Of a DNA stretch of 32,578 nt, positions 27,573-32,330 are shown piece by piece. The notes under the pieces are model-generated. The model saw only the letters and a list, made by a program, of their open reading frames with translations, was not told the DNA's origin and ran no database searches. The position numbers and the translations under genes are program-made. The DNA comes from Pedobacter agri PB92 (GTDB lineage Bacteria; Bacteroidota; Bacteroidia; Sphingobacteriales; Sphingobacteriaceae), in NCBI RefSeq assembly GCF_000258495.1, contig NZ_AJLG01000040.1:1-32578 (forward strand). Direction: 5' to 3'. How positions within the stretch are numbered: the stretch's first letter is position 1; each line of letters starts with the position of its first letter.

Positions 27573-28623
27573 ATGTCGGTATTCTCTTACAAACAGCGTA
27601 ATAATATTAATTTGCTTATTATAATAGCACTTGGGCTATTAATTGCCTATTCATTGCAGGGAATTTTTAGTGCCATTTTAAGTACGCTTGTGCTTTACAC
27701 TATTATGCGGCCTGCTTATATTCATTTAGCTGAGATAAAAGGCTGGAACAGGAGACTTGTTGCTGTTTTGTTAATTACAATAAGCATTGTATTAATTGTG
27801 CTGCCATTTTATGCGCTAAGCAGCATGGTGATCAGTAAAATATCAGAGCTTAAAAACAACGAAATTTTCTTTAAAAATCTGCTGGTTAAACTTCAACACC
27901 TGGTTCCATTTAAAATTAATCAAGATCTTATCCAGGACGGATTAAACAGAGTAGGCAGCTGGGCAACAGATTTATTTCCTTCATTAATTTCCAGTGCGGT
28001 AAATATTATACTGAGCCTGCTGGTGATGTACTTTTTACTATACTTTATGCTCATCGAACGTAAGGTATTTGAACGGTCGCTAATAAAATATGCCCCGCTG
28101 AGAGAACAAAATGCGCTTCGTTTTGGAGATGAAATGCGGAATACCACCTATGCAAATGTACTCGGACAGGGATTGATTTGCCTGGTTCAGGGATCTTTGG
28201 TGAGTTTATCTTTTTATGTTTTAGGATATAAAGACCCGGTGTTTTGGGGTATAATTACAACATTCATCTCCTTTGTTCCTATCCTGGGCCCTCCAGTAGT
28301 GTTTGTGCCGGCTGCAATTTTGCAAATAGCAAATGGAAATAATTTTGCAGGGTGGACAATGTTAATTTTCGGTTTCGTGGTCATAATTAATATTGATAAC
28401 GTATTAAGATTTATCATTGCGAAAAAAAGTTGGCAACATACATCCTATAATTACGGTAATTGGCGTAATTATTGGTATTCCTTTATTCGGAATTTTGGGT
28501 CTTGTTTTTGGCCCATTACTCTTATCTTATTTTATTTTGCTTGTTAAAATTTATGAAACCAGCACGCTGGCATCAGAAAGATTAGAAAGAATTAAAACAA
28601 ATAACGAGCATAACGAGTTATAA
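27573..28623 (+). pseudogene. AI-2E family transporter, frameshifted at an A7 run
   Basis: The product is a polytopic membrane protein of the AI-2E/PerM/YdiK family, with helices at about 10-48, 60-80, 140-160 and 205-275, and the family block GIITTFISFVPILGPPVVFVPAAI. The frame that starts at 27573 runs off after FIIAKK into an unrelated tail and stops at 28547. Removing one A from the seven-A run at 28422-28428 joins it to the frame that gives VGNIHPIITVIGVIIGIPLFG, the standard family C-terminus, ending at 28623 (349 residues). The defect may be a real mutation, a sequencing error or a site of slippage. Without the repair the protein lacks its last helices. Substrate of this family is generally uncertain. 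Confidence 0.85.
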
Positions 28624-29013: not shown

Positions 29014-29395
29014 ATGCAAGAAAATAAAGATAAAAGTATTGAAGATCTTGTTGAAGACGCCAAAGGTTTTTTGGAAGCAAGAATCGAATATACAAGACTT
29101 TACCTTGTAGAAAAGGTATCCAAAATATTTGCGGATCTAGTTACCAATACTGCCGTTATAGTATGTTTTATATTGGCTTTTTTATTTGGTAGTGTAACGT
29201 TAGCACTATTTCTATCAGATGTTTTAGGTAGTTATACCAGAGGTTTTTGGTTGCGTTTCGGGAATTTACCTTTTACTTGCTGTTATTGTTTATCTTACAA
29301 AGGATAAATACATTGAGAAGGCAATTATAAACGTAGCAATTAGAAAATATTTCGACAAACTTGCAGATAAGGAGGAAGAAGATGAGAAAGTATAA
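29014..29395 (+). pseudogene. Holin-like membrane protein (DUF1469/Phage_holin_3_6 type), frameshifted at a T5 run
   Basis: Starts MQENKDKSIEDLVEDAKGFL with a charged amphipathic N-terminus, then a first membrane hairpin helix NTAVIVCFILAFLFGSVTLALFL. After SYTRGF the reading frame turns into unrelated sequence and stops at 29307. Deleting one T from the five-T run at 29244-29248 restores GCVSGIYLLLAVIVYLTKDK, the second helix, and a basic/acidic tail ending EEEDEKV at 29395 (126 residues). The repaired protein has the normal size and two-helix layout of the family. The repaired stop overlaps the next gene's start by 14 bp, as expected for a coupled operon. Same kind of defect as in the AI-2E gene nearby. 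Confidence 0.8.
29369..29375 (+). promoter_or_regulatory. Strong Shine-Dalgarno AAGGAGG deciding the start at 29382
   Basis: AAGGAGG with a 6-nt spacer to ATG 29382. Strong SD sequences are uncommon in this window. It supports 29382 over the in-frame TTG at 29361. Confidence 0.7.
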
Positions 29396-31655: not shown

Positions 31656-32330
31656 TTATCGATCAATCATTTTATGATTAACCAGGTAAATGTAATTCAG
31701 CATACAAAAAGCAGCCACTGCGCCAAACGTGTGCCATAAAAAGTGGGTGCCGATTTCTAAAATTTCCCATTTGTCAGCGATACGAAAGGTTAAGGCAAAG
31801 ATAAAAGCCAATAATGCAAAGCCCACCCATTTTCCGTTACGCCATTCTGTTTTCATGAGATAGCCAAAAACCGGGAACAATACCAATGCGGCCATAAAGG
31901 CGTAGTTGATGTTAATGAAAATCTGAAAATCGCCGTTTGAAAAAAGCCGTCTGACATAGAATTGAAAGAAAGCATAAACTACAACGATTAGAACAGCATA
32001 ATACCACTTGGTTAATTTAGCTAAAAAGTAAACTCCTGCAGAAAGGCAAAGCAACATGATCGGCATCCAATCCATCATAATAAATATTGGCCATCGTCGC
32101 AAGCCGTGATAGGTTGTTCCGCCAATTCCTCCGATATAAAGAAGCACCAACGCTATACTTAAAAATGGGTGTTTTTTATAGTTTCCCCATATTTTAAATG
32201 TCCAGTAAACTGCAATCATTAAAAAGAAAAAACTGGTGATGGTATTTAATGGCTCTGGAAATAAATTATCCAAATTTGTTTCTGTGTAGGTAGTTCCACC
32301 ATCAGGCGGATTCTGTTTAAAAGCGTTCAT
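31656..32330 (-). CDS. Alkaline-ceramidase-like membrane hydrolase (CREST superfamily)
   Basis: A 224-residue, seven-helix membrane protein when read from ATG 32330; longer readings start in non-membrane sequence. It has the ceramidase opening EPLNTITSFFF (26-36), TTYH with His75 preceded at -4 by a Thr (Ser in most family members), Asp87 (MMDWMP), and GTHFLWH with His196 and His200. In human ACER3 the equivalent residues (Ser77, His81, Asp92, His217, His221) bind zinc and activate water. It is therefore predicted to hydrolyse an amide bond in a membrane lipid, ceramide being the likeliest because Sphingobacteriaceae make sphingolipids. It converges on the ThuA-like gene. Activity is inferred. 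Confidence 0.72.
   Translation of the reverse strand: MNAFKQNPPDGGTTYTETNLDNLFPEPLNTITSFFFLMIAVYWTFKIWGNYKKHPFLSIALVLLYIGGIGGTTYHGLRRWPIFIMMDWMPIMLLCLSAGVYFLAKLTKWYYAVLIVVVYAFFQFYVRRLFSNGDFQIFININYAFMAALVLFPVFGYLMKTEWRNGKWVGFALLAFIFALTFRIADKWEILEIGTHFLWHTFGAVAAFCMLNYIYLVNHKMIDR

What the first reader, a model, noticed from the sequence alone, without database searches (positions are those of the whole stretch)
31656..32330. Ceramidase-like gene in a lineage known to make sphingolipids
The protein keeps the metal and catalytic positions of alkaline ceramidases (His75, Asp87, His196, His200) in the correct helices, with Thr replacing the usual Ser. Sphingobacteriaceae are known to make sphingolipids; a dedicated bacterial alkaline-ceramidase would give a turnover route for them that is little described.
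Basis: partly seen in the sequence, partly recalled or inferred. Interest (0 to 1): 0.55.

Follow-up and report, generated by a model that had tools for sequence, protein, structure and literature searches.

The report
Ceramidase-like membrane enzyme, substrate unsettled
A soil bacterium carries a membrane protein built like human alkaline ceramidase, but its genome appears to lack the enzyme that starts ceramide synthesis and has one that starts the sulfur-containing look-alike lipids, so the protein may trim those instead.

Summary
The gene is real: 31656-32330 (-), 224 aa, Pedobacter. It is a seven-helix CREST protein of the alkaline-ceramidase branch (ACER3 Z 19.4, next CREST branch 14.3). 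His75, Asp87, His196 and His200 are invariant. The window protein scores below the Pfam Ceramidase cut-off (19.7 against 32.5 bits); three distant members of its clade pass.

The sphingolipid-turnover reading is not supported. No canonical serine palmitoyltransferase (SPT) was found in the window's genome; a SulA-type cysteate acyltransferase, which starts sulfonolipid synthesis, is there. Of 30 gene-bearing genomes, SPT was found in 14 and SulA type in 29. Presence does not track SPT within the genus. SulA type is near-universal in the class, so that link alone proves little.

Best reading: a Zn-dependent intramembrane amidase that removes the N-acyl chain of a ceramide-like aminolipid, sulfonolipid being the leading candidate. 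Activity is untested.

The parts
31656..32330 (-). ceramidase-like CREST membrane protein, 224 aa, seven predicted helices (27-46, 55-76, 81-106, 109-129, 135-160, 166-188, 196-223)
   Evidence: translation; AF2 model mean pLDDT 86.7, pTM 0.82; PF05875 E 6e-4, 19.7 bits, below cut-off 32.5; ACER3 best fold match
32118..32120 (-). Gly71 codon, at the place of the CREST Ser (SxxxH; ACER3 Ser77)
   Evidence: Gly 90 of 93, Ser 3 of 93 in the clade; Ser 5 of 5 in the f38 outgroup
32115..32117 (-). Thr72 codon, invariant neighbour of Gly71; candidate stand-in for the Ser (inferred)
   Evidence: Thr 93 of 93
32106..32108 (-). His75 codon, predicted Zn ligand
   Evidence: 93 of 93
32070..32072 (-). 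Asp87 codon, predicted general base (ACER3 Asp92)
   Evidence: 93 of 93
31743..31745 (-). His196 codon, HxxxH motif, predicted Zn ligand
   Evidence: 93 of 93
31731..31733 (-). His200 codon, HxxxH motif, predicted Zn ligand
   Evidence: 93 of 93
32253..32291 (-). segment T14-E26 that corresponds to the ACER3 Ca2+ loop; E17 and E26 kept, N19 mostly N or D, the ACER3 D19 and C21 positions not kept
   Evidence: column counts against the ACER3 ligands; the mapping is mine, by motif

Best explanation
A Zn-dependent intramembrane amidase of the CREST superfamily, alkaline-ceramidase branch. His75, His196 and His200 hold the zinc; Asp87 activates a water that attacks the amide carbonyl of an N-acylated membrane aminolipid, giving a fatty acid and a free long-chain base. 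The usual Ser, thought to stabilise the oxyanion, is replaced by Gly, and the adjacent invariant Thr72 may take over, as a Thr is proposed to do in LpxC. The likeliest substrates are ceramide-shaped lipids, above all sulfonolipid (N-acyl-capnine), whose first synthetic enzyme this genome encodes, rather than ceramide, for which no SPT was found. Shown here: gene, predicted fold, metal-site residues, the Ser-to-Gly change, no SPT found, a SulA-type enzyme present. Inferred: zinc, catalysis, role of Thr72, substrate, periplasm-facing active site.
For: ACER3 is the only Foldseek hit at E 0.001 or better (1.6e-4). VIA Z 19.4 over 221 residues, rmsd 4.0; next SIDT2 14.3 and AdipoR1 13.7, unrelated sodium pump KR2 11.8. 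H75/D87/H196/H200 93 of 93. Three distant clade members pass PF05875 (43.2, 42.6, 37.1 bits). ACER3 His and Asp mutants had no activity, S77A is 600-fold down, and an LpxC Thr is given a similar oxyanion role (PMC9436119 passages). Own genome: three AOS proteins; a Pedobacter SPT query finds at best 36% identity, to the glycine C-acetyltransferase, against 87% in control genome G001; no NF047600 match over cut-off. The SulA-type protein scores 623 bits to 7u7h, 586 to a cysteate acyltransferase and 223 to S. multivorum SPT, and has Lys281, against Ala in 6 of 6 SPT loci (diagnostic per PMC9304779 passages). SulA type found in 29 of 30 gene-bearing genomes, SPT in 14 of 30.
Against: No activity data. 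SulA type is in 91 of 98 class genomes, so co-occurrence is not specific (class Fisher p = 1.0; the phylum p of 8e-8 is confounded by ancestry). The SulA-type protein passes no NCBIfam cut-off, and Lys281 was checked in 16 genomes only. Five weak matches (f38, E 7e-9 to 3e-13) come from genomes with neither SPT nor SulA type found; counting them, the SulA link in the phylum sample is 11 of 16. The gene is patchy (18 of 36 in the genus), so dispensable. No lipid gene seen beside it. Ser to Gly may mean weak activity, though in Per1 the Ser-to-Ala change did no harm (PMC3146951 passages). I found no report of sulfonolipid in Pedobacter.
Confidence: 0.5

Rival explanations
1. A true alkaline ceramidase acting on the cell's own ceramides.
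For: ACER3 is the best fold match; 14 of 30 gene-bearing genomes have SPT over the curated cut-off.
Against: No SPT found in the window's genome; no association with SPT in the genus (13 of 18 with the gene, 14 of 18 without) or in the class sample (1 of 11 with, 16 of 87 without); gene in 0 of 7 class genomes with SPT and no SulA type.
Confidence: 0.15
2. A deacylase of N-acyl amino-acid lipids (ornithine, lysine, glycine or serineglycine lipids).
For: Such lipids are reported for Flavobacterium johnsoniae (PMC10025309 passage) and ornithine, lysine and hydroxylysine lipids for Pseudopedobacter saltans (PMC4484230 passages); the bond is an amide too.
Against: Their shape is less like ceramide (recalled). 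No neighbouring gene points to them. Their synthesis genes were not surveyed, so co-occurrence is untested.
Confidence: 0.2
3. A scavenging enzyme for ceramides from eukaryotes or other bacteria.
For: Patchy gene (18 of 36 in the genus) with signs of transfer: Chryseobacterium copies group with Pedobacter chitinilyticus and P. helvus, support 100/99. The charge pattern suggests an active site facing the periplasm.
Against: No uptake or secretion partner stands beside it across genera in the 80 loci listed.
Confidence: 0.1
4. A CREST protein without hydrolase activity, in which the loss of the Ser marks loss of catalysis.
For: The Ser is called universally conserved in CREST (PMC9436119 passage) and is absent in 90 of 93 rows.
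Against: All three His, Asp87 and Thr72 are invariant, unlike decay; in Per1 the Ser was dispensable.
Confidence: 0.05

Closest known systems
Human alkaline ceramidase 3 (ACER3, PDB 6g7o), Pfam PF05875
   Same: Seven-helix fold (Z 19.4); three His and one Asp; Glu at the E22 and E33 positions of the Ca2+ loop, Asn or Asp at N24 in 87 of 93 rows.
   Different: 12% identity; Ser77 is Gly71; D19 and C21 of the Ca2+ loop not kept; the window protein is under the PF05875 cut-off; charge pattern predicts N-out while ACER3 is N-in.
Bacterial CREST hypothetical groups 1 and 2 (Pei et al. 2011, PMC3146951)
   Same: Proteins of unknown function, bacterial (group 1 with plants too), that group with alkaline ceramidases (section read).
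   Different: Bacterial members mainly Proteobacteria; whether this family belongs to them was not tested, as their sequences were not at hand.
PF05875 proteins of family f38, same phylum (L144-L146, L152, L153)
   Same: Weak matches to the family profile; same His and Asp set.
   Different: Keep the CREST Ser (5 of 5) and a YCE loop like the ACER WCE; no SPT or SulA type found in their genomes.
SID-1, PAQR/AdipoR, myomaker (other CREST branches)
   Same: Same overall fold.
   Different: Lower structural scores: SIDT2 14.3, AdipoR1 13.7, myomaker 12.8.

Membership tests
CREST superfamily | seven core helices with His at the end of TM2, Asp at the start of TM3, HxxxH at the start of TM7 | tested here: met
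   model and columns, against the description
CREST superfamily | Ser of the SxxxH motif | tested here: not met
   Gly71 in the window; Gly 90 of 93, Ser 3 of 93 in the clade. Other members of the same clade keep the Ser, so kinship to CREST does not rest on it
Alkaline ceramidase family (PF05875) | Pfam gathering score of 32.5 bits | tested here: not met
   window protein 19.7 bits; met by three distant members of its clade, 43.2, 42.6 and 37.1 bits
Alkaline ceramidase family | closest solved fold is ACER rather than another CREST branch | tested here: met
   no Per1 chain among the rows shown, so against Per1 this is inconclusive
Alkaline ceramidase (ACER) | Ca2+ loop DWCE(x)N and AEF with the C21-C196 disulfide | tested here: not met
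   E22 and E33 equivalents invariant, N24 equivalent N 58 and D 29 of 93, D19 and C21 equivalents not kept
Alkaline ceramidase (ACER) | hydrolysis of ceramide | not testable with these tools
   needs an assay
Endogenous sphingolipid pathway | serine palmitoyltransferase in the genome | tested here: not met
   no NF047600 match over cut-off in G000, all candidates scored; an SPT query finds only three paralogues, at 36, 35 and 21% identity; draft assembly, 99.89% complete, 3.06% contaminated
Sulfonolipid pathway | cysteate fatty-acyltransferase of SulA type with Lys281 | tested here: met
   L119 protein; it passes no NCBIfam cut-off
Sulfonolipid pathway | cysteate synthase, 3-ketocapnine reductase and N-acyltransferase | not tested
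   no search was made for these

The most novel reading that the evidence does not exclude
A sulfonolipid amidase: a CREST enzyme that lost the superfamily's Ser, uses the neighbouring Thr, and deacylates N-acyl-capnine at the periplasmic face, the first turnover route for sulfonolipids and a source of free capnine.
Probability: 0.25. Interest if true: 0.65.

Novelty: new variant of a known kind. Interest (0 to 1): 0.4.

Why it matters
Several genes of sulfonolipid synthesis are known, but a sulfonolipid-degrading enzyme did not turn up in my searches (listing; in PMC11211663 the word starts 'hydrol' and 'degrad' occur 0 times). A ceramidase-shaped protein in bacteria that encode the first step to this ceramide analogue, often without SPT, is a testable candidate. 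A natural Ser-to-Gly variant with an invariant Thr beside it would also test what the CREST Ser does.

Tried and rejected
Operon clue: genes around the 80 loci were clustered. In 22 of 27 Chryseobacterium loci the next gene is one cluster, typed on one representative (L075) as PIG-L deacetylase and followed there by a sodium symporter and a DUF2911 protein. The gap is 156-1007 bp and the loci of other genera listed do not show it, so I do not read it as an operon. Solved-structure sequence searches found nothing with single sequences; the profile found only GABA-receptor chains and a chimera with them, E 0.013 and above, taken as chance between membrane helices. NCBIfam: no family. PF05875 in the own genome at E 0.001 gave nothing; at 0.01 the gene appears with E 0.009. 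No Per1 structure was among the 50 rows each. A geometric check of Thr72 was not done: the model's coordinates are not among the files in the Python box.

Rows dropped before counts: one search matched 16 of 395 genomes; I counted the 11 with E below 1e-50 and set aside 5 (f38). L082 (159 aa) and exact duplicates left out (115 rows to 98 distinct: 93 clade, 5 f38), and the poor PF05875 matches L148, L151, L155 and L158; L150 gave no match to the family profile. In the 395-genome samples only part of the first-look candidates were scored per genome (at most 4, 6); for G000, G007, G008, G021 and G031 all were scored. Lys281 was checked on 17 loci from 16 genomes, not on all SulA-type hits. Class membership (98 genomes) was read off the listing and counted. 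The tree had an unsettled bootstrap and long branches.

Full report
What is there. The ORF at 31656-32330 (-) is intact, 224 aa. The window is G000:C40:1-32578 of a 5.14 Mb assembly in 379 contigs. The locus fetched around the gene stops 248 bases upstream of it (L001, 2420 bases), so the contig ends there and the upstream neighbour is not seen. The 3' neighbour is a convergent ThuA-family gene. The closest named relatives are Pedobacter. One search kept 80 of 82 loci: mostly Pedobacter and Chryseobacterium, with some Flavobacterium and other Flavobacteriaceae or Sphingobacteriaceae, one Hufsiella and one Mariniphaga.

Fold and family. The AF2 model from 33 sequences has mean pLDDT 86.7 and pTM 0.82, with seven helices. 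Foldseek gives ACER3 as the only PDB hit at E 0.001 or better. VIA-align gives ACER3 Z 19.4 (221 residues, rmsd 4.0, 12% identity), then SIDT2 14.3, AdipoR1 13.7 and myomaker 12.8; the unrelated sodium pump KR2 has 11.8. It thus sides with alkaline ceramidases and not with PAQR or SID-1; Per1 was not among the rows. By sequence the window protein has 19.7 bits to PF05875, below the cut-off of 32.5. 24 of 33 family members match PF05875 at E 1 or better, best 1.5e-7, and three more distant members of the clade pass the cut-off (43.2, 42.6 and 37.1 bits). The link to PF05875 is therefore transitive for the window protein.

Active site. Over 93 distinct clade rows (the window included; mostly close relatives, so not independent), His75, Asp87, His196 and His200 are 93 of 93. 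The CREST Ser column is Gly in 90 and Ser in 3 (L020, L109, L111). Thr72 is 93 of 93. Five outgroup rows (f38) all keep the Ser; their next residue is Thr in 2 and Ala in 3. A tree built without that column needs at least two changes between Ser and Gly (bootstrap not settled, long branches). In ACER3 the S77A mutant loses 600-fold activity, and the authors propose oxyanion stabilisation and compare it with a Thr in LpxC (PMC9436119, passages). In the Per1 family, Ser to Ala did not affect activity (PMC3146951, passages), so the Ser is not needed everywhere. That Thr72 stands in is my inference: residues at His minus 3 and His minus 4 of a helix can both face the metal. Of the ACER3 calcium loop (D19, W20, E22, N24, E33; PMC6303388, passages), the E22 and E33 equivalents are invariant, the N24 equivalent is N or D in 87 of 93, and D19 and the C21 of the disulfide are not kept. 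Asp10, in 101 of 101 rows, might supply a ligand; that is a guess.

Topology. In the window protein K/R number 10 on the side opposite to the N-terminus and 6 on the N-side; all 33 aligned rows lean the same way. They are related, so this is close to one observation. It suggests N-out, with the metal site towards the periplasm. ACER3 is N-in. This is a prediction only.

Lipid context, own genome. A TIGR01825 search finds three AOS proteins. L118 is glycine C-acetyltransferase over its cut-offs. L119 matches SulA of Alistipes finegoldii (7u7h, 623 bits) and another cysteate-C-fatty acyltransferase (28eh, 586 bits), far above S. multivorum SPT (223 bits). It passes no NCBIfam cut-off and has 281 bits to the SPT model NF047600 (cut-off 640). 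The third is a weak match. A Pedobacter SPT as query finds no SPT in G000 (best 36% identity, the L118 gene), while the control genome G001 gives 87%. [quoted passage not shown]

Co-occurrence. Genus (36 genomes): gene in 18. SPT over cut-off in 13 of these 18 and in 14 of the other 18 (Fisher p = 1.0). SulA type in 17 of 18 (the miss is a 78% complete genome) and 18 of 18. Phylum sample (395 genomes): gene in 11 strongly and 5 weakly, SPT in 17, SulA type in 93. Of the 11, SPT 1 and SulA type 11; of the 5, SPT 0 and SulA type 0. Within the class part of that sample (98 genomes): gene in 0 of 7 with SPT only, 1 of 10 with both, 10 of 81 with SulA type only; neither test is significant at class level (SPT p = 0.68, SulA type p = 1.0). 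Adding two class relatives (G036, G048), 30 gene-bearing genomes were examined: SPT found in 14, SulA type in 29. The data speak against a role that depends on SPT-made ceramide. They permit, but do not show, a tie to sulfonolipid.

Surroundings. No lipid-metabolism gene is conserved beside it; the only repeated downstream set is in Chryseobacterium, see Tried and rejected.

Literature seen. Pei et al. 2011 placed bacterial CREST groups of unknown function near ceramidases and suggested testing them for ceramidase activity (PMC3146951: abstract, sections 12 and 13, passages). Searches for bacterial alkaline ceramidases or sulfonolipid-degrading enzymes (listings only) showed none by title or by the abstract openings shown, apart from the secreted Pseudomonas aeruginosa ceramidase (PMC5150637, listing), which as I recall is of the unrelated neutral type. 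The library lacks most subscription papers, so this is weak. Sulfonolipid synthesis in Chryseobacterium gleum and A. finegoldii: PMC11211663 (passages). In PMC10025309 and PMC4484230 (passages) I saw no sulfonolipid reported for Pedobacter.

Verdict. A member of a known superfamily with an unusual active-site change, whose substrate in this organism is probably not SPT-made ceramide. Interest 0.4.

Noticed in passing
window 27573-28547: The AI-2E family transporter gene looks frameshifted: its last ~40 residues are unlike the rest, another frame continues with plausible sequence, and the four relatives found match residues 1-285 only. It could be an assembly error.
   Followed up: partly
window 29014-29307: A small membrane-protein ORF also seems to change frame near its end, judged from the three frames printed; relatives were not compared.
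   Followed up: no
loci L071-L081, L083-L096, L099, L100 (Chryseobacterium): Chryseobacterium copies group with those of Pedobacter chitinilyticus and P. helvus (support 100/99), which suggests transfer between families; in 22 of 27 such loci the same gene cluster (PIG-L deacetylase by one representative) follows.
   Followed up: partly
genus sample: Canonical SPT is patchy in the genus (27 of 36 genomes over cut-off) while the SulA-type enzyme was found in 35 of 36, so sphingolipid synthesis should not be assumed for each Pedobacter.
   Followed up: yes
class part of the phylum sample: Each of the 98 class genomes has SPT only (7), a SulA-type enzyme only (81) or both (10); none was found with neither.
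   Followed up: no
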